Assembly: GCA_032139905.1 (NCBI GenBank)
Contig: JAQJDB010000005.1
Location: 603,001 to 667,000, forward strand
DNA length: 64,000 nucleotides
DNA from: Nitrospira sp. MA-1
GTDB lineage: Bacteria; Nitrospirota; Nitrospiria; Nitrospirales; UBA8639
Direction of reading: 5' to 3'
Shown: in pieces, positions 839-56,035 of the stretch
How the letters are laid out: each line of letters opens with the position of its first letter
How positions within the stretch are numbered: position 1 is the first letter of the stretch
Program-made: the position numbers and the translations under genes
Notes under the pieces: model-generated
Database searches by the model: none
What the model saw: only the letters and a program-made list of their open reading frames with translations
What the model was told of the DNA's origin: nothing

Positions 839-1492
839 TTAGGCCTTGTTGGAGGGTCTGGCTTCCCAATCCGAGAGAAATTTTTGTAAACCATTATCTG
901 TCAACGGATGTTTGACGAGCTGCTGGAATACGGCATAGGGCATCGTGCAAATATGTCCGCCAGTGAGAGCCGCTTCGACTACATGTTGGGGATGCCGGAC
1001 GCTGGCGACGAGCACCTGTGTGGTGAAATTGTAGTTTTCGTAGATCGTCAGGATTTGTCGAATAAGCTCCATGCCATTTGAACTGACATCGTCCAGCCGG
1101 CCAATAAATGGCGAGACGCACCATGCCCCGGCTTTGGCGGCCAACAAGGCTTGAGTGGGTGAGAAGCACAAGGTGACGTTGACACGGATACCTTCACTGG
1201 ACAATTGTTTCGTGGCCTTGAGCCCTTCCGGGATGAGGGGACATTTCACCACGATATTCTTGTGAAGTTTCGCTAATTCCTTTCCTTCCTTCACCATGGC
1301 CGCGGCTTCCGTGCTGACGACTTCTGCACTGATGGGCCCATCCACAATTCCGCAAATTTCCAGGAGTAGATCCTTGAAATCACGTCCCTCCTTAGACACA
1401 AGCGAAGGGTTTGTGGTGATGCCATCGACCAGGCCATAACTGGCCGCTTCACGAATCTCCTTGACGCTGCCGGTATCGAGATAGAGCTTCAT
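839..1492 (-). CDS. tal: transaldolase (fructose-6-phosphate aldolase-like)
   Basis: Class I aldolase of the small transaldolase/FSA family, 217 residues, the usual length. It transfers a dihydroxyacetone unit in the non-oxidative pentose phosphate pathway. Visible active-site features are Asp6 (YLD), the TTNPS motif at 26-30, the Schiff-base lysine Lys83 in VVKCPL, and SPFIGRLDD at about 127-135. The frame extends upstream to 1576, but MKLYLD is the family's N-terminus and an AGGGGA ribosome-binding site lies just before it, so 1492 is the start. It is convergent with the glycosylase. A second, degenerate paralogue lies at 47201-47794. 6-Phosphogluconolactonase nearby suggests a loose pentose-phosphate neighbourhood. 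Confidence 0.9.
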
Positions 1493-1828
1493 ATCGAGTC
1501 CCCTTTTTGGTTTGTCCACTGGTGTTGTCTGAGTTGTCTCGTGTCCTATTGTAATCCACACCCCTGGCTTGTACAAATTTCCCTATCCATTATTTAGAAG
1601 GGAAATTCATCTGCGAGCCTGCCTGACAGATGGTCACGGAGGGGGAAGTGCCAGCCTCTAGGAGGGCAGTTACCTATTGTTGACCTACCACGCGGAGAGG
1701 AGGAAGATTGAGTCCTCCTCCAGGATGATGAGTAACATTGTTTGACTGGTAGAGGATCGAAGGCTAGAATTTTCACAGAGTAAACAGTGTGTTCGCGTTT
1801 TCAGTCATTGTTGGGGGAGGAGACGGGT
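1493..1828. other. intergenic region, no gene seen
   Basis: Divergent spacer between the transaldolase gene and the small lipoprotein gene. Both promoters should lie here, but no convincing consensus stands out. The short frames in it have no ribosome-binding site or recognisable product. Confidence 0.5.
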
Positions 1829-44830: not shown

Positions 44831-46366
44831 GTGGAACGAATTGAGAGAAATTACCGGGCGCTATTGAATGTCGCGATTGTGCTCAATTCACAACGGGATA
44901 CCAGTAGTCTCTGGCAAGCGATTATCGAGCAAATTGAACAGGTCATGCCTTGGGCACGGGCGAGTGTGACCTTATATGATCGTAAATCGGACGGGTTCCA
45001 GTTTTATGTTGTGACGACTCATTTGGCCAGGGTCGTGGTCCAAGGTGATACGGTGATACCGCGTGTTGGGAGTGGAATGGGGTGGGTGTACGATCACAAA
45101 ACGTTACATGTCCGTCCTGACCTCAATCAGCACCAGGTCTTTCTCGAAGACCCCTGGTATGCGGAGGAAGGACTTGGACGCATGATTAACCTTCCCCTGT
45201 TGGTTAGAGGGAAGTGTGTGGGAGTCTTGAATCTTGGGAGCGTTGATGCGGGTGACCCGGACCCAGATGCGATTGAGTTTTTATCGCAAGTGGCCATGCA
45301 AATTGCCTATGCGATTGATCATGTTCAGGCCTATGAGGAAATTAATCTGTTGCGTCAGCATTTGGCACGAGAAAATGTCTATCTGGTCGAGGAACTCAAA
45401 CTGACAAAACATTTCGGGGCCATGGTCGGACGGAGTCAGGTTTTTCAGCATGTATTGGAACTCGCTCGCGAGGTGGCACCTACGACGGCGACGGTCCTCA
45501 TCACCGGAGAAACGGGAACCGGGAAAGAACTCCTTGCCCAAGCCATTCATGATTGGAGCCTGCGTGCTAAAAAGCCGTTTATAAGGGTGAATTGTGCGGC
45601 CCTTCCAGCAGGATTGGTCGAAAGCGAATTATTTGGTCACGAAAAAGGCGCATTTACCGGAGCCGACACCAGGCGTGAGGGGCGTTTTGAGTTGGCTCAT
45701 GGCGGGACCTTGTTGTTAGATGAAATCGGGGAAATTCCTTTGGAGACTCAAGCGAAATTATTACGAGTGATTCAGGACGGGATGGTTGATCGTGTGGGTG
45801 GCAAACAGTCTATCCCGGTGGATATTCGGTTGATGGCCTCGACCAATGCCGATCTGCCTTCAGCTATTGAGCAAGGTCGTTTTCGGGCTGACCTTTTTTA
45901 TCGACTTCATGTGTTTCCGATTACTATCCCTCCACTCCGTGCCCGGCCGGAAGATATTCCAGAACTTGCACAGCATTTCCTTGAGCACTATGCCATTAAA
46001 CTTAAGCGGCCCTGCGAATTGATTGAACCGGATTCTCTCCAGCGGCTTATCCGGTATTCCTGGCCGGGAAACATTCGAGAACTGGAAAATGTCATTGAGC
46101 GGGCGGTGATTCTCTCCCACCAAAAGGTTCTGCGTATTGATGAACGGCTCTTGATTCTCCACAACACGAGGCAGGAATCCAAGGCCCCGGCTGGGTTAGT
46201 CGATTTTGAACGGCAACATATTCTCCAGACGCTGGCTTCCAGCAATTGGCAGATCGAGGGGGAGAACGGAGCAGCGGAACAACTCGGATTGGCTCCGAGC
46301 ACACTCCGGAGCCGGATCAAAAAGTTAGGTCTTCAACGGCCGAATAACTCACCCCCCAAAAAGTAA
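44831..46366 (+). CDS. sigma-54-dependent activator with GAF sensor, paralogue
   Basis: 511 residues, same architecture as the protein at 42163: GAF (about 10-170), AAA+ with [21 protein letters not shown] (GAFTGA intact), [20 protein letters not shown], and [22 protein letters not shown]. The recognition helices of the two are nearly identical (PSTLRSR-x-KK), so they may bind similar sites. GTG start at 44831 with GAAGGA. The GAF parts share EEGLGRMIN and VFLEDxxY, so ligands may be related. No cotranscribed target lies immediately downstream. Confidence 0.94.
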
Positions 46367-47200
46367 TCTTTGCAACATTCCCTTCTTCGCAGAGTCCGTC
46401 TTCATTTCTAAGATCTTTCCTTCATGATGTTTGGTGTCTGTACTCTACGATCTCCCACCGACTTATGATGTTGTTCATGTGATCAAAAATATACGAGTGT
46501 GTTCATTTCAATGAGTCTTCAGGCCGTATGCACCTGGTCGAAGACTTACACTGGTGTCTCCGCTGGTGAGAGGGTGTGTTTTGTCCTGATACTGGTGCCT
46601 TTTGCGTATTTGTAACCGACACACGGATCTAAGGTTCAGGTTGATGTAGTCTATTTTTCATGTGGCAATCTGTTCTCTTTTTATTGCCCGCTAGCGGTTG
46701 GCAGGTCAGGTAGGTAGCGGCCCAGTGGAACATCTCAGATGGCACCCAAACCTATTCCGAAATTGTGTTAGCGCATCAGGTCTTCAGGATCCAATGTGAA
46801 GCTTACCGTTCACCTCATGAATTTTTTTTACTTCTTTTCTTAATCTGATTTCCTAGTTTTTTAAAATCTCACTCCGAAGCATAGCCGCGTCATATCAAGG
46901 TTTAAGTGCTAGAGCCACCACGGACTGTCGTGGTTATGTTTATCCATCTTCATCAACCATGGACTTTTTTATCTGAATCAAAGCAAATTGTAGGAATTTT
47001 TTCCGTATGGGTTCTCAGCCGAACCATGGCTTAGTCTATGCATATCAGCGTGAAGCTACCTGAATGAGAACAAGTGAAGAGAGTGGTTGTCGTGAGGCTC
47101 ATGATAATTAAAGATTATGAGGTGAGAGCGGCACGTGATGGTTCCGGCAATGTTATTAAGGGCGAGGAGGGTTGTTCCTGTTCATGAGTAATGACCGTTC
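46367..47200. other. 0.8-kb region without a supported gene
   Basis: No frame with ribosome-binding site, no recognised motif. No acceptable -24/-12 site was found. It separates the regulatory block from the nitrite-oxidation island. Confidence 0.45.
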
Positions 47201-47794
47201 ATGAAATTTTATCTCGATACGGTGAGCCTCACAGAAATTCGGGAGATTGGCAGTCTGGGAATTTTGGATGGGATAGCTATGAACGCCAGTTTGGTTTCTG
47301 AGCAGGGTTTGAATTTTTATCAAGGAATTCGGGAAATCTGTCGTTATGTGGACAGCCCGATTAGTGTGGGTGTGTTGAGTATAGAAGAAGAAGCCATCGT
47401 CAAGGAAGGAATGGAATTATCAAAAATTCATAGAAATGTTCTGGTGAAATGTCCCTTGACACCTGCAGGTCTCAAGGCGACGAAGCGATTGACAGCCGAA
47501 GGTCTCCGGGTAAATGTGTCTCTGTGTTTTTCTCTTACGCAAGCATTGATTGCCGCGAAAGCCGGTGCGTGGTGTGTGTCCATTTGTCCCGATCACACCG
47601 GCGACAATCAATCTATGGGAAACGATATCACTCGCAAAATTGTCACAGTTTTTCGAGACTATGGGCTTTCCACTCAGGTGCTGCTCGCCGGTATCCGTTC
47701 TCCTCATGAGGTGCTTGAGGCGGCGTTGGCGGGAGGGCATATCTGCACCATGCCATATGCTATGTTTCGTCAACTTTTCGATCCTGCGGATTAA
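47201..47794 (+). CDS. divergent transaldolase-like protein (altered active site)
   Basis: 197 residues, shorter than the paralogue at 839-1492 (217). It keeps Asp6 (YLD), Asn28 and Lys83 (VKCPL), so the Schiff base could still form. The TTNPS signature has become AMNAS (26-30), and SPFIGRLDD has become SICPDHTGD, losing the phosphate-binding arginine. The rest is closely similar ([35 protein letters not shown]). It may be a pseudo-enzyme or have changed substrate. It lies alone upstream of the bd-like oxidase gene. Ribosome-binding site not strong. Confidence 0.8.
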   Translation: MKFYLDTVSLTEIREIGSLGILDGIAMNASLVSEQGLNFYQGIREICRYVDSPISVGVLSIEEEAIVKEGMELSKIHRNVLVKCPLTPAGLKATKRLTAEGLRVNVSLCFSLTQALIAAKAGAWCVSICPDHTGDNQSMGNDITRKIVTVFRDYGLSTQVLLAGIRSPHEVLEAALAGGHICTMPYAMFRQLFDPAD

Positions 47795-47955
47795 CTATCT
47801 TCCGACCACCTCCTCAGAACTGAATCACATTCTTCAGAGCTCTCACGCCATCTTGGGAATGCTCCGGTAGGAGCAGGTTTTATCCTTTCCGGCTGTGCTT
47901 TTGAAGTTTTGTCTCTTTGTACTCGTTCATATTTTTCCGAGTTCAGCCACGCAAA

Positions 47956-47991
47956 GTGGTGGGTGCCCACCGCGCCCCACCACGTCTTTTC
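47956..47991 (+). terminator. terminator-like hairpin before the bd-like oxidase gene
   Basis: Stem GTGGTGGG / CCCACCAC (47956-47963, 47976-47983) with a 12-base GC-rich loop, followed by GTCTTTT. A weak T-tail makes it either a modest terminator for the transaldolase-like gene or a structured leader of the next operon. Confidence 0.4.
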
Positions 47992-48144
47992 GTGGGCATA
48001 TGAACGACCTATCAATGAAATACTCCAATAAACACGTGCCACGCTATGGTTTATAAGGGATTGCCCGGGACCATTGAATAATTTTTTTTCGGGCATAGCC
48101 CATGCAGAGCGTTCAATAACATACAGAAAAGACAGGAATGTAAT

Positions 48145-50253
48145 TTGGTGAAGAAAAAAATAGGGCAAATTCAGAAAAGCTTCATGAATAAATTTCTCAA
48201 GGAGTACATTTCGGCTTACACGCCTGATGAGCTCAATGATCTTCGGGGGAGAGGAATGAAAGGAGTGCGTAGAGAAATGAGTGGAAGGAAACTTAAAAAA
48301 AATGCCGCAATCATCCTGATCAGCTTGATCACGGTAATGCTGTTGCTCCCGATCGGTATTGCTATGCCTATTCTGTTTGGAAATGGTGAAGCCATCGCAT
48401 CGGGGGGAGGAGGGCAAAGTCCTCAGTCTGCTCAAGAGGTGGTCGAAGGAGAGGAAGGCGAAGCGCCGGTCGAAATGGGTCGGGATATTTATTACAAGAC
48501 AGAGGGCGTGGTGTCGAGTGAAACGGCTCCGGTCACCGCGGACAATACGCATGATTATCCCCGCTATGGCAATTTTGAAAGTCGAGTGCTGATTTGGGTT
48601 GCGAACCAGCAGCATTTATATTACGGCAGTTTTGTCTTGGCGGTTCCTATCTTCTGCATGGTGATTGAGTTCATCGGCATGGTGACAAAGGATAAGGCCA
48701 TGGCGAAGAAATACGACCAGCTGGCCTATGATTTTATCCGAATCAGTCTGACGGCATATTCGCTCACCGCGATTCTTGGGGGAATTCTTCTCTTTACCTT
48801 CCTCACTCTGTATCCCACATTTTTCAGCTATCTTTCGGGAATTTTCCGTCCCGTCATGCACATCTACGCTTTGCTGTTCGTCGCCGAAAGCGGAACGCTG
48901 TATATCTACTACTACGGATGGGACAGGATGAGGGAAGGAGTCCTGAAGTGGGTGCATCTCAGTATCGCCGTGGTCTTGAATGTCATTGGAACCGTGCTGA
49001 TGTTTTTAGCGAATTCGTGGATCGCCTTCATGATGTCACCGGCAGGGGTGGATGAACAAGGACGATACCTCGGGAATATTTGGCATGCGATTCATAGCGC
49101 GTTGTGGAATCCGCTGAATGTTCATCGAATTTTAGGAAATATGGCATTCGGAGGCAGCGTCGTTGCCGCCTACGCGGCCTATCGGTTTTTATCCGCTAAA
49201 ACCGATGAAGAACGTGCCCATTACGACTGGATGGGATACGTCGCGATGTTTATCGCCGTCATTTTCCTCATTCCATTGCCGTTTGCGGGCTATTGGCTCA
49301 TGCGGGAGGTATATGCCTATCGCCAGCAAATGGGAATTACCCTGATGGGAGGCCTCCTCGCTTGGTTGTTTATTATTCAGGCCACCATGATCGGTGCCCT
49401 TTTTCTGAGTACGAGTTATTACTTGTGGCAATGCTTTGGCCGGATGCCGGGTGCGGAACGATTTCAACGGTATATTAAGTATCTGGTGTTTATTGCGGTC
49501 GTGGGATTACTGGTGTTCATCACGCCCCATACCATTGTCATGACCCCGGCTGAGTTGAAAGCCATGGGAGGTCAACAGCATCCCGTTTTAGGAAACTATG
49601 GGGTGATGTCGGCCAAAAATGGCGGAATCAATATGCTCATCATTGTGACGATTGTGAGTTTCATTTGGTATCAGCGCGGCAATTTGATTCCGGCCGTGAA
49701 ATGGAAAAAGTTCGGCAATATTTTCATGACCTGTTTTTTCGTGGTCGGCAGTCTCAATATTATTTGGTTAGCCATCTATGGGTATTTCATTCCGGCAAAC
49801 GTTCGGATTGGGCTGTCAGTTCCTCAAGTCGCCACCACAATGTCGTGCCTCTTGTTAATGATGCCGATGAATCTGGCCATGCTGAAAAATGCCAAGGTGG
49901 CGGGTCCCATTCAATGGGGCAAAATGCCGGCGAGATCGCAATATGCTCTGATTGCTCTGGCCACGGAATTTACCTGGATGATGGCCTTGATGGGATACAT
50001 CCGCTCATCAGTCCGTCTCTTCTGGCATGTGAACGAGGTCATGCGGGATAACTCGCCTTGGGCTTATACCCATACCATCGGGTTTGCCGCGAATATGATC
50101 TCCTTCAATGTTCTGCTGTTCTGGTCGACTATTCTATTCGTGTTCTGGCTGGCGGCTTTTGCTGGGAAAAAATCGCCGGTACCGGAAACGCCGAAGGTCC
50201 CAGAGTCACAGGCTGTGCCGCAGTTCACTCCTCAAGCGGCCAGTCGTTCCTGA
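48145..50253 (+). CDS. cytochrome bd-like oxidase, Nitrospira type
   Basis: Up to 702 residues with about 14 transmembrane helices. Conserved stretches reminiscent of CydA include NQQHLYYGSFVLAVPIF, NPLNVHRILGNMAFGG and histidines in MHIYALLFVAESG. Nitrospira genomes encode a bd-like protein of this kind, proposed as the terminal oxidase of nitrite respiration; this is family knowledge. Start is uncertain: TTG/GTG at 48145-48148, ATG at 48184, or ATG at 48256, which has the best site (GGGGGAGAGG) and still keeps all helices. A Gly/Ser/Glu-rich loop (GGGGQSPQSAQEVVEGEEGE) follows helix 1. The neighbours nxrA and a one-helix gene suggest an electron-transfer unit. Confidence 0.8.
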   Translation: MVKKKIGQIQKSFMNKFLKEYISAYTPDELNDLRGRGMKGVRREMSGRKLKKNAAIILISLITVMLLLPIGIAMPILFGNGEAIASGGGGQSPQSAQEVVEGEEGEAPVEMGRDIYYKTEGVVSSETAPVTADNTHDYPRYGNFESRVLIWVANQQHLYYGSFVLAVPIFCMVIEFIGMVTKDKAMAKKYDQLAYDFIRISLTAYSLTAILGGILLFTFLTLYPTFFSYLSGIFRPVMHIYALLFVAESGTLYIYYYGWDRMREGVLKWVHLSIAVVLNVIGTVLMFLANSWIAFMMSPAGVDEQGRYLGNIWHAIHSALWNPLNVHRILGNMAFGGSVVAAYAAYRFLSAKTDEERAHYDWMGYVAMFIAVIFLIPLPFAGYWLMREVYAYRQQMGITLMGGLLAWLFIIQATMIGALFLSTSYYLWQCFGRMPGAERFQRYIKYLVFIAVVGLLVFITPHTIVMTPAELKAMGGQQHPVLGNYGVMSAKNGGINMLIIVTIVSFIWYQRGNLIPAVKWKKFGNIFMTCFFVVGSLNIIWLAIYGYFIPANVRIGLSVPQVATTMSCLLLMMPMNLAMLKNAKVAGPIQWGKMPARSQYALIALATEFTWMMALMGYIRSSVRLFWHVNEVMRDNSPWAYTHTIGFAANMISFNVLLFWSTILFVFWLAAFAGKKSPVPETPKVPESQAVPQFTPQAASRS

Positions 50254-50402
50254 TGTGGTTCATGGCAAATTGATGGATGGCTTGGTGAATGTGAATAAAT
50301 CATGGATTCATGAAACCAATGGAGGACAGAGCGATGAAAGGCGCATTCACTCATTCAAGATGAAGCGCATGATGGATTGGTTGGATCGTGAAGGAGAGCG
50401 AA

Positions 50403-50600
50403 ATGATGGATTTTTGGGTTGCAAATCCTCTGATTGAAATGATCTTCGGAATAGTCAGCTTCGTGGGAGTCCTCGTATTGGGTTGGGCAAATCTTATGGT
50501 CGAGCCACCGAAAAACGCGGTGGCGATACCTGCTGACTTGAATGTCTGGGAAAGACACCGGTTACGGCAGTCTCAACGAAGGGAGGGATATCAGAATTAA
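50403..50600 (+). CDS. small one-helix membrane protein between bd-like oxidase and nxrA
   Basis: 65 residues from the ATG at 50403 (AAGGAG at 6 nt). One helix: PLIEMIFGIVSFVGVLVLGW, then a basic cytoplasmic-type tail (NVWERHRLRQSQRREG). Size and topology recall CydX/CcoQ accessory subunits. Its position between a bd-like oxidase and nxrA suggests it stabilises one of these complexes. The nxrA start follows 43 nt later. No family recognised. Confidence 0.6.
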   Translation: MMDFWVANPLIEMIFGIVSFVGVLVLGWANLMVEPPKNAVAIPADLNVWERHRLRQSQRREGYQN

Positions 50601-50643
50601 TCGGGCAGTGAGGAATGGAAACCTTAATTTGGAGGAGCGTTTC

Positions 50644-53600
50644 ATGTTTGTAACAAAAAGGCAATTTTTGAAAATTACGGCAAGCACCGTAGCTGCTGTG
50701 GCGTTGGCGGATAAAGCGCTGGCGTTGACGGCGTTACAGCCAGTCATCGAAGTTGGAAATCCTCTCGGGGAATATCCCGACCGCTCATGGGAGCGGGTCT
50801 ACCACGATCAATATCGCTATGACAGTTCGTTTACCTGGTGTTGTTCCCCCAATGACACCCATGCCTGTCGGATCCGGGCGTTTGTCCGAAACGGGGTCGT
50901 TATGCGGGTCGAGCAGAATTATGATCATCAAACGTATGAAGATCTCTATGGCAACCGTGGTACGTTCGCGCATAACCCCCGGATGTGCCTGAAGGGGTTT
51001 ACCTACCATCGTCGAGTCTATGGGCCCTACCGGTTGAAGGGACCTTTGATGCGGCGAGGCTGGAAAGCCTGGATGGATGACGGAAGTCCGGAGTTAACGC
51101 CAACTATCATGACCACATATAAATTCAATGCCCGCTATCTGGATGATATGTTGCGGGTCTCTTGGGATACCGCGTTTACGTATTTGGCCAAGGCCATGAT
51201 CGTGATCGCCAACCGGTATAGCGGCGAGGCTGGAGCGAGGAGATTGCGGGAGCAAGGGTATCCGCCGGAAATGATCGAGATGATGAAGGGCTCGGGAGTC
51301 CGGAGTATGAAGTTCCGTGCCGGTATGCCTGTGTTAGGTGTCATTGGAAAAATGGGCATTACCCGCATGAACGGAGGATGCGGAGCCTTGTTGGATAGTT
51401 GGGTGAGAAAAGTCGGACCGGACAGTGCCCAGGGGGGGCGGTATTTTAATAATTTAACCTGGCACGGAGATCAGGATCCTTCTCAGCCTTTCTGGTCAGG
51501 TGCGCAAGCCATCGATTGTGATCTTTCTGACATGCGGTTCACCAAGATGAACACGAGCTGGGGTAAAAACTTTGTTGAAAACAAGATGCCGGAAGCGCAT
51601 TGGAAACTCGAATCCATCGAACGGGGCGCCCGAGTGGTGGTCATTACCCCGGAATACAATCCGACGGCACAACGAGCCGATTATTGGATGCCGGTCCGCC
51701 CCGAGACCGATGGCGCGTTATTTCTTGGGGCATGCAAAATTATTTTAGACGAAGGTCTTCAGGACAGCGATTTCATTCGATCCGGTACGGATCTCCCCTT
51801 GTTGATTCGGACGGATACCTTGCAATATTTGGATCCGCGAGACGTTATAAAGGATTATGCGTTCCCGGATTTCTCCAAATCTTACTCCGGCAAGGTTCAA
51901 GGGCTGTCGGCTTCGCAGGTCGCTCGCCTTGGAGGGTGTATGGTATGGGACCTCAACCAGCAGAAGGCGGTTCCCCTTCATCGTGAACTGGTGGGTTGGC
52001 ATTTTAAAAACAGCGGCCTTGATCCGGCGTTAACGGGAACGTTCAGGGTGAAATTGCTGAGTGGGAGGGAGGCAGATGTCATGCCCCTTTTCCAGATGTA
52101 CCAGGTTCATCTGCAGGATTACGATCTGGATACCGTCCATCAAATCAATCGATGTCCGAAAGACCTTATTGTGCGATGGGCTAGAGATAACGGAACCATC
52201 AAGCCTGCCGCCATTCATAATGGAGAAGGCGTCTGTCACTATTTTCATATGACGTCGATGGGACGTGCGGCCGCCATGGTGATGATACTGACCGGAAACA
52301 TGGGGAAATTCGGAACCGGATGTCATACATGGTCAGGAAACTATAAAGTTGGTGTTTGGGCGGCCACTCCATGGTCAGGGGAGGGCATTGGCATTCATAC
52401 CGGGGAAAATCCGTTCAAGATCACGACGGATCCGAATGCCCATGGGAAAGAGGTTAATTACCGTCCGTACTATTACGGCGAAGAAACGACCTACTGGAAT
52501 CACGGCGATACGGCGTTGATTGTGAATACGCCGAAGTACGGTCGTCGGGTGTTTACGGGCAAAACGCATATGCCGACGCCGAGCAAGCTTCGATGGGTTG
52601 CCAATGTCAATATTCTCAATAATGCCAAGCACCATTATGACATGGTTAAAAATGTGGATCCCCACATTGAAGTGATTGTGACTCAGGACATTGAAATGAC
52701 ATCCGATGTGAATCATGCCGATGTGTCATTCGCGGTGAACGGGTGGATGGAGTTTACCTATCCGGAAATGACCGCCACCGTTTCGAATCCCTGGTTCCAG
52801 GTGTGGAAAGGCGGCATCCGGCCGTTGTATGACACACGGAACGATTTGGATACGGTCGCGGGCGTCGCGGCTAAACTCACCGAAATGACGGGGGATGGGC
52901 GGTTCCGCGATTACTTTAAGTTTGTCTATGACAATCGCGTGGACGTGTATCTGCAACGGTTGTTGGATGCGGGCAACTGCTCCTATGGCTATAACGCGGA
53001 TACGATGTTGAAGTCGGAAAAGGGCTGGATGGTCATGACCCGGACCTATCCTCGCGTCCCATTGTGGGAAGAAGTCAACGAATCGAAACCGCAGTGGACG
53101 CGTAGCGGACGCCTGGAAACCTACCGGGTGGAGCCGGAAGCCATTGAATATGGGGAAAACTTCATTGTCCATCGGGAAGGCCCGGAGGCAACCCCGTATT
53201 TGCCGAATGCGATCATGTCCTCCAATCCGTATATCCGGCCGGATGACTATGGGGTGCCGATCACGGCGCAACATCATGACGACAAAACCATCCGCAACAT
53301 CAAGTTGCCCTGGTCGGAAATTAAACGGTACGCCAATCCGCTTTGGGAGAAGGGGTATCAGTTCTATTGCGTCACTCCGAAGACCCGGCATCGGGTGCAT
53401 AGCCAATGGTCGGTGAATGACTGGGTGCAGATGTATGAATCCAACTTTGGGGATGCCTATCGGATGGATAAGCGGACGCCAGGAGTTGGCGAGCATCAAA
53501 TCCATATCAACCCGGCCGCGGCCAAAGATCGGGGGATCAACGATGGGGACTATGTCTACATCGACGGCAACCCGGTGGACCGGCCGTATCGGGGCTGGAA

Positions 53601-54081
53601 GCCCAGTGACCCGTATTACAAGGTGGCGCGGTTAATGATCCGGGCGAAGTACAACCCGGCGTTCCCGTACCATGTCACGATGGCCAAGCATGCGCCGTAT
53701 GTGTCGACCGCGAAGTCGGTGAAAGGGCATGAAACCCGGCCGGATGGACGGGCGATTGCGCTGGACACGGGCTATCAATCGAACTTCCGGTATGGAGCGC
53801 AGCAGTCGTTTACCCGCAGTTGGCTGATGCCCATGCACCAACTAGACTCGTTGCCGGGCAAAATGGCTAATAAATGGAAATTCAAATGGGGGTTTGAAAT
53901 CGATCACCATGCGGTCAATACCGTGCCGAAGGAATGTCTCATCCGTATTAGCAAAGCGGAGGATGGCGGTATCGGCGGCCGTGGACCGTGGGAGCCGGTT
54001 CGGACCGGGTTTACCCCAGGCCAGGAGAATGAATTCATGATCAAATGGCTGAAGGGTGATCATATTAAGATCAAAGTGTAA
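50644..54081 (+). CDS. nxrA: nitrite oxidoreductase alpha subunit
   Basis: 1,145 residues, the catalytic molybdopterin subunit of the type II DMSO-reductase family; oxidises nitrite to nitrate. The N-terminus TKRQFLKITASTVAAVALA fits a Tat signal with Lys-Arg in place of Arg-Arg, consistent with a periplasmic enzyme. The N-terminal cluster region reads C67-x3-D71-x3-C75-x39-C115, an Asp-containing [4Fe-4S] motif (plain Cys66 precedes it). GGAGGAG precedes the ATG at 50644; the frame is open from 50542. nxrB follows 665 nt later with a receiver gene in between. The 3' part (about 53.1-53.8 kb) is much more GC-rich than the rest. nxrC is not in the window. Confidence 0.96.
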   Translation: MFVTKRQFLKITASTVAAVALADKALALTALQPVIEVGNPLGEYPDRSWERVYHDQYRYDSSFTWCCSPNDTHACRIRAFVRNGVVMRVEQNYDHQTYEDLYGNRGTFAHNPRMCLKGFTYHRRVYGPYRLKGPLMRRGWKAWMDDGSPELTPTIMTTYKFNARYLDDMLRVSWDTAFTYLAKAMIVIANRYSGEAGARRLREQGYPPEMIEMMKGSGVRSMKFRAGMPVLGVIGKMGITRMNGGCGALLDSWVRKVGPDSAQGGRYFNNLTWHGDQDPSQPFWSGAQAIDCDLSDMRFTKMNTSWGKNFVENKMPEAHWKLESIERGARVVVITPEYNPTAQRADYWMPVRPETDGALFLGACKIILDEGLQDSDFIRSGTDLPLLIRTDTLQYLDPRDVIKDYAFPDFSKSYSGKVQGLSASQVARLGGCMVWDLNQQKAVPLHRELVGWHFKNSGLDPALTGTFRVKLLSGREADVMPLFQMYQVHLQDYDLDTVHQINRCPKDLIVRWARDNGTIKPAAIHNGEGVCHYFHMTSMGRAAAMVMILTGNMGKFGTGCHTWSGNYKVGVWAATPWSGEGIGIHTGENPFKITTDPNAHGKEVNYRPYYYGEETTYWNHGDTALIVNTPKYGRRVFTGKTHMPTPSKLRWVANVNILNNAKHHYDMVKNVDPHIEVIVTQDIEMTSDVNHADVSFAVNGWMEFTYPEMTATVSNPWFQVWKGGIRPLYDTRNDLDTVAGVAAKLTEMTGDGRFRDYFKFVYDNRVDVYLQRLLDAGNCSYGYNADTMLKSEKGWMVMTRTYPRVPLWEEVNESKPQWTRSGRLETYRVEPEAIEYGENFIVHREGPEATPYLPNAIMSSNPYIRPDDYGVPITAQHHDDKTIRNIKLPWSEIKRYANPLWEKGYQFYCVTPKTRHRVHSQWSVNDWVQMYESNFGDAYRMDKRTPGVGEHQIHINPAAAKDRGINDGDYVYIDGNPVDRPYRGWKPSDPYYKVARLMIRAKYNPAFPYHVTMAKHAPYVSTAKSVKGHETRPDGRAIALDTGYQSNFRYGAQQSFTRSWLMPMHQLDSLPGKMANKWKFKWGFEIDHHAVNTVPKECLIRISKAEDGGIGGRGPWEPVRTGFTPGQENEFMIKWLKGDHIKIKV

Positions 54082-54217
54082 ATGAGTTGGAGGCTGGGGA
54101 TATTTTTTTCTATATTGACGTCTAGAAAGAAACATGATGAATACCTCCCCCCAGCCTCCGCCTTTTTCAAGAAAGAAGGAATGTTATTGGTAGAAACCGT
54201 TTTGTAAGGAGCATCCG

Positions 54218-54298
54218 ATGAAGATAATCCGGTGCAAATATGTACGGCATAGACCAGGACCATGTGGTGACCAAACCCTTTTTATTCGTGGTGGATGA
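54218..54298 (+). other. short SD-led reading frame overlapping the receiver gene
   Basis: AAGGAG at 54206-54211 is placed six bases before the ATG at 54218, which opens 26 codons (MKIIRCKYVRHRPGPCGD, then QTLFIRGG) ending at 54298, out of frame with the receiver gene. It is the best ribosome-binding site in the nxrA-nxrB gap, so ribosomes probably load here. Possible leader peptide that couples or attenuates translation of the receiver; unproven. Confidence 0.4.
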
Positions 54299-54671
54299 TG
54301 ATGAGGTCGTTCGTCGGAGTATTGTCAAAAGATTGATTCGTCTGAACTGTACGGTGAGAGATTTTGAATCTGGGGAAGCGTTAATTAATTCCTTAGAACA
54401 TTTGAAAGAAAATCCGGACGTGATTTTGTTGGACTATAAAATGAAAGGGATAAATGGGATTGAAACATTACGGCGTTTGCGGAAAACTCACCCCATGATC
54501 CCGACGTTTATCTTTACGGCCTATGCCGGGGAAAGGGATTTGAGCCTAGTGGAGGAACTTGGCAATTGTGAGGTCCTGCTCAAAACCGTGGATCTTCATG
54601 CCTTGCACCACATCGTGAATGGGGCTATGGCGATCAAAAAATTACGAATGAGTGAATGTGCTGATTGTTAG
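54240..54671 (+). CDS. receiver-domain response regulator between nxrA and nxrB
   Basis: 143 residues, receiver only. FLFVVDDDEVVRRSI gives the acidic site, Asp65 in VILLDYKMKGINGI is the phospho-acceptor, and FIFTAYAG the switch Thr. The usual Lys-Pro is Lys-Thr (LLKTVD). The annotated ATG at 54240 has no ribosome-binding site; GTGs at 54264 and 54267 follow AGGA and are alternatives. An SD-led short frame overlaps the start. It overlaps the upstream frame of nxrB. Its place inside the nxr operon suggests it controls NXR or senses the same signal. Confidence 0.85.
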   Translation: MYGIDQDHVVTKPFLFVVDDDEVVRRSIVKRLIRLNCTVRDFESGEALINSLEHLKENPDVILLDYKMKGINGIETLRRLRKTHPMIPTFIFTAYAGERDLSLVEELGNCEVLLKTVDLHALHHIVNGAMAIKKLRMSECADC

Positions 54672-54745
54672 AGAATGGGATTTTAAATCAAGAGACAGCT
54701 AGCAGAAATTTTTATGCATTTATTTATGTAAGACGGAGGACGACA

Positions 54746-56035
54746 ATGCCTGAAGTGTATAACTGGCAGTTAGGACGAAAGATGCTGTATCCGTATGAGG
54801 AGCGGCATCCGAAATGGCAGTTTGCGTTTGTCTTTAACATCAACCGGTGTTTGGCATGTCAAACCTGCTCGATGGCGGACAAGTCGACGTGGCTGTTCAG
54901 CAAAGGGCAGGAATACATGTGGTGGAACAACGTGGAAACGAAGCCGTATGGGGGCTATCCACAATTTTACGACGTCAAGATTACGCAGCTCATCGAGCAA
55001 GTCAATCCGGGCGGCCAGGTGTGGAACGTGCGGGTGGGCCGCAAGCACCATGCACCGTACGGAGTGTTTGAAGGGATGACGATCTTTGATGCGGGGGCCA
55101 AGATCGGGCAGGCGGCCATTGGCTACATCCCGACCGACCAGGAATGGCGGTTTGTGAATATTTATGAAGACACGGCGACCTCGATGCGGGCGATCGTGGA
55201 AGGAGTGGATAAGACGGGGTTCACGAAAGAAGAGCCGTGGAAAATGCAAGGCAGCAGCTTGCCGGAGCATGAAACGTATTTCTTCTATCTGCAACGCATC
55301 TGTAACCACTGTACGTATCCAGGCTGTCTGGCGGCGTGTCCGCGGAAGGCCATCTACAAGCGGCCGGAAGACGGGATTGTGTTGATCGACCAGAACCGGT
55401 GCCGGGGGTACAAGAAGTGTGTGGAACAATGCCCGTTTAAGAAGCCGATGTACCGGGGCACGACGCGGGTAAGTGAGAAGTGTATTGCGTGCTATCCGCG
55501 GGTCGAGGGCAAAGACCCCCTCACGGGGGGCGAGCCGATGGAAACCCGATGTATGGCGGCGTGCGTGGGTAAGATCCGGTTGCAAGGGCTGGTGAAGGTG
55601 GGCGATGACGGGTTATGGGCGGAAGATCGCTGGAATCCGTTGTACTATGCCATTCGGGTGGAACAAGTGGCGTTGCCGTTGTATCCGCAATGGGGCACGG
55701 AGCCCAATGGCTTCTACATTCCCCCACGCCAAGCCCCACGGGGCTACATCCGGCAGATGTTCGGGCCGGGAGTGGATAATGCGATAGAGAAGTATCTGGT
55801 GCCGAGCCGGGAATTGTTGGCGGTGCTGCAGTTGTGGCGGGCGAGCCAACAGATCATCTTCCGGTATGACGTGATTCCGGGACCGAAAGTGTTCGAAACC
55901 CAAATCCATGGGCGGAAGTTTGAGATGTACAACGACACGGTGTTGGGGTTCAACAAATCGGGCAAGGAAGCGGTGCGGCAGCAAGTGGAAGAGCCGATTT
56001 ACATCCGCCCGGCCGAGCGGGTGAACTGGCTGTAG
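54746..56035 (+). CDS. nxrB: nitrite oxidoreductase beta subunit
   Basis: 429 residues, the iron-sulfur electron-transfer subunit. Four cluster motifs: C35-x2-C38-x2-C41-x3-D45 (Asp at the fourth position), CNHCTYPGCLAACPRK, CRGYKKCVEQCPF, and CIACYPR with CMAACVGK. It wires NxrA to the membrane partner. No signal peptide, so it is likely exported with the Tat-tagged alpha subunit. CGGAGGA precedes the ATG at 54746; the frame opens at 54665 within the receiver gene. Codon use is GC-rich (CGG, GCG, CTG) compared with the surrounding genes, like the 3' part of nxrA. Widely used as the Nitrospira marker gene. Confidence 0.97.
   Translation: MPEVYNWQLGRKMLYPYEERHPKWQFAFVFNINRCLACQTCSMADKSTWLFSKGQEYMWWNNVETKPYGGYPQFYDVKITQLIEQVNPGGQVWNVRVGRKHHAPYGVFEGMTIFDAGAKIGQAAIGYIPTDQEWRFVNIYEDTATSMRAIVEGVDKTGFTKEEPWKMQGSSLPEHETYFFYLQRICNHCTYPGCLAACPRKAIYKRPEDGIVLIDQNRCRGYKKCVEQCPFKKPMYRGTTRVSEKCIACYPRVEGKDPLTGGEPMETRCMAACVGKIRLQGLVKVGDDGLWAEDRWNPLYYAIRVEQVALPLYPQWGTEPNGFYIPPRQAPRGYIRQMFGPGVDNAIEKYLVPSRELLAVLQLWRASQQIIFRYDVIPGPKVFETQIHGRKFEMYNDTVLGFNKSGKEAVRQQVEEPIYIRPAERVNWL

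What the first reader, a model, noticed from the sequence alone, without database searches (positions are those of the whole stretch)
48145..50600. bd-like oxidase and a one-helix partner placed directly before nxrA
The 702-residue bd-like protein has CydA-like stretches but no CydB gene. A 65-residue single-helix gene with a good SD separates it from nxrA. The set may form one electron-transfer unit from nitrite to oxygen, with the small protein as a new accessory subunit.
Basis: partly seen in the sequence, partly recalled or inferred. Interest (0 to 1): 0.5.

Follow-up and report, generated by a model that had tools for sequence, protein, structure and literature searches.

The report
bd-like oxidase relative beside nitrite oxidoreductase
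In one group of nitrite-oxidising bacteria, an extra copy of an oxidase-like membrane protein and a tiny one-helix protein are inherited together directly before one version of the nitrite-oxidising enzyme, so the tiny protein is probably a real, undescribed helper of this membrane module, although the module is not shown to reduce oxygen.

Summary
A CydA-like gene (likely start 48256, 665 aa rather than 702), a 65-aa one-helix gene (50403-50600) and nxrA (50644) lie in that order. The small gene is real: clear matches occur in 8 of 235 Nitrospirales genomes, the same 8 in which the listed matches show a bd-like copy of 84% identity or more. It follows that gene in 8 of 8 loci, and its dN/dS is 0.07-0.18 in 21 pairs. 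It has no significant match in Pfam, NCBIfam or the PDB, and lacks the CydX motif.

The bd-like protein is known in kind: an OR-N/'bd-like' CydA relative, for which a missing CydB is normal. It is a second paralog of the universal 'bd-like_3' and lacks that gene's cytochrome c neighbours. It carries Gln and Phe where the proposed oxidase (NIDE0901 type) has His, so a complete nitrite-to-oxygen unit is not supported.

The NxrA of this locus contains the peptide that defines NxrA_2 of Nitrospira marina, a protein quantified in that bacterium. The likeliest reading is a lineage-IV cassette: one NXR isoform, a bd-like electron-transfer partner, and a helper helix working like CydX. Function is untested.

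The parts
   Evidence: PF01654 E=1.7e-14; AF2 model pLDDT 70.2, pTM 0.69; closest solved folds are cytochrome bd subunit I, Z 29.1-32.4; start site; Q478/F626; tree
50341..50368 (+). inverted repeat GCGCNTTCA..TGAAGCGC between the bd-like and small genes, exact in 5 of 6 aligned genomes (one change in G224), single match in this genome
   Evidence: alignment of six genomes; one match in own genome, 0 in the control; no pair of this helix changed on both sides; RNA fold z=0.37, so no evidence of an RNA structure
50391..50396 (+). Shine-Dalgarno AAGGAG of the small gene
   Evidence: read; conserved
50403..50600 (+). 65-aa single-helix protein gene, undescribed family; invariant M1 E12 G16 F20 G22 V23 L26 G27 N30 P35 P36 R55
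   Evidence: 8 genomes; no Pfam match below E 0.18, no NCBIfam match at E<=0.1, no PDB match below E 0.22
50644..54081 (+). nxrA, nitrite oxidoreductase alpha subunit, N. marina NxrA_2 type
   Evidence: Pfam molybdopterin oxidoreductase; 3 copies in genome, third cut by a contig end; NxrA_2 peptide at 51634
54240..54671 (+). response-regulator receiver gene lying between nxrA and nxrB
   Evidence: PF00072 E=1.7e-20; same place in G216, G217, G224
54743..56035 (+). nxrB
   Evidence: Fer4_11 E=1.8e-22; 100% identical over 430 residues to the nxrB beside nxrA copy L008
47201..47794 (+). transaldolase / fructose-6-phosphate aldolase-like gene before the bd-like gene, syntenic in 8 of 8 loci
   Evidence: PF00923 E=8.8e-33; TIGR00875 178 bits, under its cut-off of 245.95; synteny

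Best explanation
The locus is a lineage-specific respiratory cassette. A second paralog of the universal 'bd-like_3' CydA relative sits, without that gene's cytochrome c partners, before one nxrA isoform, and a 62-65 aa one-helix protein evolved or was recruited beside it. Shown: order, co-inheritance, purifying selection, CydA-like fold, paralogy, and that an NxrA with this locus's isoform peptide is made in N. marina. Inferred: the helix packs against the bd-like protein as an assembly or stability subunit, working as CydX does for CydAB without being CydX. The bd-like protein carries heme and passes electrons between the periplasmic NXR (or its cytochrome) and another membrane complex, most likely as the non-catalytic half of a CydAA'-type pair with a His-complete NIDE0901-like subunit, rather than reducing oxygen itself. 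No Cys or His of the small protein is invariant, so it is unlikely to carry electrons.
For: Small gene (E<=2.4e-5) and nxr-linked bd-like paralog (>=84%) found in the same 8 of 235 genomes and in the same order in 8 of 8 loci. dN/dS 0.07-0.18 in 21 pairs. Invariant helix-region residues E12 G16 F20 G22 V23 L26 G27 N30 P35 P36 down to 31% identity. The nxr-linked bd-like proteins form one clade, 100/100, inside an extra-paralog clade, 96/91, with fixed changes such as E608 (15 of 15 rows against A in 11 of 11 bd-like_3 rows). Fold like cytochrome bd subunit I, Z 29.1-32.4. H157, E248 and H327 kept in every row with a residue there; H157 and E248 align with His and Glu of solved CydA sequences, H327 only approximately. 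Q478/F626 where the NIDE0901-like copy has His. NxrA_2 peptide in 6 of the 6 nxr-linked nxrA sequences that reach it; N. marina NxrA_2 measured at 1,154 and 851 copies per cell (PMC8115632). Small one-helix subunits, and convergent analogues of them, are known for cytochrome bd oxidases (PMC4325964, passages).
Against: No direct evidence of physical contact, translation of the small gene, or function. Two nxrA loci of genus g28 have the bd-like gene without a helix gene, so the helix is not needed for every member of the extra clade. Two nxrA genes close to one of those have no bd-like gene before them. The gap to nxrA is 43 nt, the gap to the bd-like gene 149 nt, and the latter holds a conserved inverted repeat that may mark a separate promoter or operator, which would pair the helix with nxrA rather than with the bd-like gene. 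CydX goes with a long CydA Q-loop (PMC4325964), which bd-like proteins are reported to lack (PMC3578206), so the analogy cannot extend to that contact. One His is shared by 7 of 8 small proteins.
Confidence: 0.45

Rival explanations
1. The small helix is an NXR assembly or docking factor: it anchors or helps the isoform NxrA_2/NxrB at the membrane, and the bd-like neighbour is incidental.
For: Small gene lies 43 nt before nxrA with a strong SD between; 149 nt with a conserved inverted repeat separate it from the bd-like gene. The NXR gamma (anchor) candidates of Nitrospira are not encoded beside nxrAB (PMC6606698).
Against: 8 genomes have it while 179 of 235 have an nxrA match at E<=1e-100, and the other two nxrA copies of this genome lack it. 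It comes with the bd-like gene in 8 of 8 loci. Charges hint weakly that the longer tail is cytoplasmic (N side -1, C side 0 to +2 in 7 of 8; -2 and -1 in G209), while NXR is periplasmic.
Confidence: 0.22
2. One reading: NXR, bd-like protein and helix form one complete nitrite-to-oxygen respiratory complex.
For: Gene order; a respiratory supercomplex of related parts, with alt-NxrC and cytochromes, was proposed in print (PMC6606698).
Against: Q478 and F626 in place of the His of the proposed oxygen site (PMC8026999); no cytochrome c or NxrC among the neighbours scanned in Pfam, while the universal copy has two cytochrome c genes after it.
Confidence: 0.1
3. The bd-like protein works on the quinone side, letting electrons from nitrite flow uphill (reverse electron transport), with the helix as a structural part.
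For: This role was raised for the bd-like protein of Nitrospina, should it bind quinone (PMC3578206). The model also resembles the F/C subunits of alternative complex III, Z 20.8-22.9.
Against: The same paper states that the quinol-binding residues of CydA are lacking; PMC12324825 states the same for complex IV of Nitrospira. The fold likeness is weaker than to CydA.
Confidence: 0.15
4. The small gene is the relic membrane anchor of the c-type cytochrome that follows bd-like_3, kept after duplication of that gene pair.
For: Eye alignment with a helix of the 442-aa cytochrome of L012; hhalign picked that same helix, E=0.14.
Against: E=0.14 in a single comparison and negative HMMER scores; no DNA similarity beyond short chance matches.
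Confidence: 0.06

Closest known systems
bd-like_3 protein of Nitrospira, in the conserved cluster with two cytochromes c and alt_NxrC (PMC6606698, PMC8026999, PMC3578206; passages read)
   Same: 77-79% identity to the copy in this genome, same Gln/Phe pair
   Different: Window copy belongs to a separate paralog clade, has no cytochrome c neighbours, sits before nxrA, and has its own one-helix neighbour and fixed changes such as E608. That the L012 copy is 'bd-like_3' is my inference from its neighbours
NIDE0901-type OR-N2 bd-like oxidase, proposed complex IV of Nitrospira
   Same: Same superfamily, 41% identity to the candidate copy in this genome (L013:12380-14278)
   Different: Has His at both positions where the window protein has Gln and Phe
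Canonical cytochrome bd subunit I (CydA), PDB 5doq, 9r2g, 7ose
   Same: Fold, Z 29.1-32.4; aligned His and Glu in the N-terminal half
   Different: No CydB neighbour; sequence match limited to the N-terminal half; quinol site reported absent for bd-like proteins (PMC3578206)
CydX, 37-aa small subunit of E. coli CydAB (PMC4325964, passages)
   Same: Small one-helix protein encoded beside a CydA-type gene
   Different: CydX motif YxxWxxGx15E/D absent from all 8 small proteins (sequences); no family-model match; 62-65 aa with a longer tail; no CydAB beside it

Membership tests
Cytochrome bd subunit I superfamily (CydA-like) | PF01654 match above gathering score | tested here: met
   53.7 bits against cut-off 26.2
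Cytochrome bd subunit I superfamily (CydA-like) | CydA fold | tested here: met
   All 9 Foldseek matches with E<=0.001 are cytochrome bd oxidase chains; Z 29.1-32.4 over 345-357 residues; model only moderately confident, pLDDT 70.2
Cytochrome bd subunit I superfamily (CydA-like) | Heme-ligand His/Glu of the N-terminal half | tested here: met
   H157 and E248 align with CydA residues and are kept in every row that has a residue there; H327 aligns only approximately; that these residues are ligands in CydA is recalled. The C-terminal ligands were not tested
OR-N / bd-like proteins of nitrite oxidisers | CydA-type protein without a CydB neighbour | tested here: met
   No CydB among the neighbours scanned in Pfam
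OR-N / bd-like proteins of nitrite oxidisers | Place in the published CydA tree (OR-N1, N2, N5) | not tested
   The defining paper (Murali 2021) is not held; subclade number not assigned
NIDE0901-type proposed cytochrome c oxidase | His at the proposed CuB and high-spin heme positions | tested here: not met
   Q478 and F626 in all 26 bd-like_3, extra and nxr-linked rows; H and H in the L013 copy. Matching these columns to the paper's residues is my inference from its text
Canonical quinol-oxidising cytochrome bd (CydAB) | Quinol-binding residues of the Q-loop | not tested
   PMC3578206 reports them absent in bd-like proteins; the C-terminal half did not align by sequence
CydX | Motif YxxWxxGx15E/D, in 97% of 299 homologues of PMC4325964 | tested here: not met
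   Read on the 8 sequences: no Tyr stands three residues before a Trp
CydX | Match to a CydX family model | tested here: inconclusive
   No match in Pfam (E<=1) beyond one chance hit, none in NCBIfam (E<=0.1); presence of a CydX model in those copies was not checked and short helices match poorly

The most novel reading that the evidence does not exclude
Lineage-IV Nitrospira carry a dedicated, isoform-specific electron exit for one NXR (the NxrA_2 type): a neofunctionalised bd-like subunit with an acquired glutamate in a predicted membrane helix (E608) and its own obligatory one-helix subunit, making the first NXR isoform that comes with its own membrane electron acceptor.
Probability: 0.15. 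Interest if true: 0.7.

Novelty: new variant of a known kind. Interest (0 to 1): 0.42.

Why it matters
How electrons get from NXR to the respiratory chain in Nitrospira is unsettled in print (PMC6606698, PMC12324825; passages). This cassette ties one NXR isoform to one bd-like paralog and one small protein, apparently in a cultured bacterium, so co-migration and expression can be tested directly in N. marina. If the helix is a subunit, it would be a small subunit for a bd-like protein of nitrite oxidisers; my searches and the passages I read show no earlier proposal of one.

Tried and rejected
Relic anchor of the cytochrome c that follows bd-like_3: hhalign E=0.14, HMMER scores negative, no DNA similarity beyond chance; not supported.

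One-helix partners as a recurrent feature of lone bd-like copies: a 26-aa peptide lies after extra bd-like copies in G138, G093 and G067, but a wider search found the peptide in 43 of 235 genomes; in the 30 loci fetched (up to 1.5 kb each side) a DUF721-like gene is near it in 29 and a bd-like gene in only 3. Not a bd-like partner. (The DUF721 label is recalled; no family search was run.)

Sigma-54 promoter for the operon: 27 matches in the window against 32 expected by chance, none between 45982 and 60713; no sigma-70-like site in 46300-54800. RNA structure before the small gene: z=0.37. Small family in the PDB: best E=0.22 to a rhodopsin, taken as chance. Small family in the phylum: of 395 genomes sampled 22 matched; five are known carriers, the other 17 have E 0.011-0.043 and I take them as noise without having looked at their neighbourhoods. 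The same holds for the 97 further genomes at E 0.017-1. The pattern scan of genome contigs returned 5 loci, whose contig lengths are those of five of the eight carriers.

A joint history of NxrA and bd-like was tested: the bd-like tree joins family f1 and f3 copies while NxrA follows the families, so the pair was not shown to be inherited as one unit. Which neighbour order came first is open.

Limits: one search scored at most 4 or 5 matches per genome and printed only the best rows, so extra bd-like copies below about 1,088 bits may be missed. In G206 the small gene is followed at the contig end by nxrA residues 111-149, so adjacency to an nxrA start is shown in 7 of 8 loci. Two nxrA copies and one half copy of this genome were compared; one search also printed only its best rows. 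Rows left out: L078 was dropped from the cytochrome set because, unlike the other 21 of 22 loci, no cytochrome follows it; L078 and G045_x in the tree are the same protein.

Full report
Observation. The order bd-like gene, small gene, nxrA is in the sequence. The bd-like ORF matches PF01654. Its stated 702 aa begins at a TTG. An ATG at 48256 behind GGGGGAGAGGA has counterparts in the five other genus-g1 copies (GTG in G220), and in 6 of 7 relatives a stop makes the upstream frame shorter than the 702-aa version needs (G224 stays open), so about 665 aa is likelier. The small gene begins at ATG 50403, 6 nt behind AAGGAG, and ends at 50600; nxrA begins at 50644.

Is the small gene real? In 235 Nitrospirales genomes it is found in 8 with E<=2.4e-5: six of genus g1 (this genome, G216, G217, G220, G224, G225), G206 (68%) and G209 (31-34%). 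Weaker matches in 97 further genomes have E 0.017-1 and I take them as noise. The 8 form one alignment with 12 invariant positions. Nucleotide changes are mostly silent: dN/dS 0.07-0.18 in 21 pairs among seven genomes; of the 7 pairs with G209, 5 are undefined and 2 saturated. In all 8 loci the order transaldolase-like gene, bd-like, small is kept; nxrA sequence follows in 8, though in G206 only a piece of it (residues 111-149) at a contig end. The family f1 is therefore probably the UBA8639 family, Nitrospira lineage IV; that equation is mine, from the name and from PMC12342949.

Co-occurrence. The bd-like search lists copies of 84% or more identity in exactly those 8 genomes; all other listed copies are at 73-82% (best rows only). 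In this genome there are six bd-like matches, the sixth weak at 24%, and three nxrA loci, the third cut by a contig end; only this nxrA has the two genes before it.

What the bd-like protein is. The closest paralog in the genome (79%, L012:14588-16555) is followed by two c-type cytochrome genes and farther on by a gene with 24% identity to what I take for an alternative NxrC of L013 (L091). In 21 of 22 such loci fetched, the same cytochrome follows. This fits the published cluster of bd-like_3 (PMC6606698, PMC8026999; passages read). A tree of 50 rows places the eight nxr-linked copies in one clade (100/100) that joins eight other rows, seven different extra copies of family f3, in a 16-row clade (96/91), apart from the universal copies. 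Members of the extra clade in G055 and G056 also lie directly before nxrA, about 340-360 nt away, with no ORF of 35 aa or more that has a membrane helix in between. Two nxrA genes close to that of G056, in G054 and G059, have no bd-like gene in the 5-6 kb before them. NxrA itself follows the families. The extra paralog is thus old or mobile, and its place by nxrA is accessory.

Can it reduce oxygen? An AlphaFold2 model from 33 rows (pLDDT 70.2, pTM 0.69) resembles cytochrome bd subunit I best (Z 29.1-32.4; all 9 Foldseek matches with E<=0.001 are cytochrome bd chains) and next the F/C subunits of alternative complex III (Z 20.8-22.9). H157 and E248 align with CydA residues and are kept; H327 is kept and aligns roughly. 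PMC8026999 states that one variant of bd-like oxidase keeps all residues for heme and copper binding, while the conserved-cluster variant has a Gln for one CuB His and a Phe for the high-spin heme His. In the alignment the NIDE0901-like copy L013:12380-14278 has H and H where all 26 rows of the universal, extra and nxr-linked groups have Q478 and F626. That these columns are the ones meant is my inference. So the window protein probably lacks two of the proposed ligands. The extra clade has fixed E608 (15 of 15) against Ala in the universal copies (11 of 11), in a predicted helix (596-632): a possible change of function. CydB is not expected: published work treats OR-N enzymes as putative CydAA' pairs (PMC12342949, PMC10839748; passages read).

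Is the locus used? PMC8115632 quantified isoform-specific NxrA peptides in N. marina (section read). The NxrA_2 peptide is in the nxrA of this window and of the five other nxr-linked loci whose contigs reach it, and not in the other two nxrA copies of this genome. Genome G217 carries all seven isoform peptides over its three nxrA loci, so N. marina, or a very near relative, has this cassette. NxrA_2 was measured at 1,154 (air) and 851 (low oxygen) copies per cell; it was not the isoform that rose at low oxygen. Nothing I read reports the bd-like copy of this locus or the small protein at the protein level.

How it most likely works. Small protein: one hydrophobic stretch around residues 10-33, about 10 residues before it and a tail of about 30 after it. 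Charges hint only weakly at N-out, C-in (N side -1, C side 0 to +2 in 7 of 8; -2 and -1 in G209). No Cys or His is invariant (one His in 7 of 8), so a redox role is unlikely. The conserved helix and the strict company of the bd-like gene suggest a packing subunit. CydX does this for CydAB, and analogous small proteins have been found beside other cytochrome bd operons (PMC4325964, passages). It is not CydX: the motif YxxWxxGx15E/D is absent, and CydX goes with a long Q-loop that bd-like proteins are reported to lack. The bd-like protein is likely a heme-bearing partner subunit that takes part in electron flow from NXR, not a complete oxidase. These last steps are inference.

Novelty. Searches for bd-like oxidases in Nitrospira, CydAA'/OR-N, bd with nxrA, complexome data, and small or accessory subunits and CydX and the passages read do not show a bd-like gene directly before nxrA or this small gene; most listed papers were seen as listings only, and supplementary files and closed papers were not searched. 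It is a new variant of a known kind.

Noticed in passing
54240-54671: A response-regulator receiver gene sits between nxrA and nxrB, also in G216, G217 and G224 (54-57% identity); in the other complete copy of this genome nxrA and nxrB are adjacent.
   Followed up: partly
47201-47794 and 839-1576 (minus): Two fructose-6-phosphate aldolase/transaldolase-like genes; the one beside the bd-like gene scores below the NCBIfam cut-off and is syntenic in 8 of 8 loci, though its role beside NXR is unclear.
   Followed up: partly
L082:6785-6862 (minus), L090:6030-6107 (minus), L087:7473-7550: A 26-aa conserved one-helix peptide (such as MISFIEVFLLAAIFGVLYAMLQLASR in L108) in 43 of 235 Nitrospirales genomes, all of one genus, near a DUF721-like gene in 29 of 30 loci.
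   Followed up: partly
50341-50368: Conserved inverted repeat before the small gene, one match in the genome; may be an operator or promoter element.
   Followed up: partly
L012:12021-13899; L080, L081, L168, L169: Formylglycine-generating-enzyme-like (FGE-sulfatase) genes precede the universal bd-like_3 gene and also nxrA or bd-like-nxrA loci of genus g28; a link to bd-like or NXR maturation is possible.
   Followed up: no
L009 and L010 (ends of contigs C5 and C7): The third nxrA of this genome stops at a contig end, and a 20-residue nxrA tail opens another contig; probably an assembly break in a repeat.
   Followed up: no
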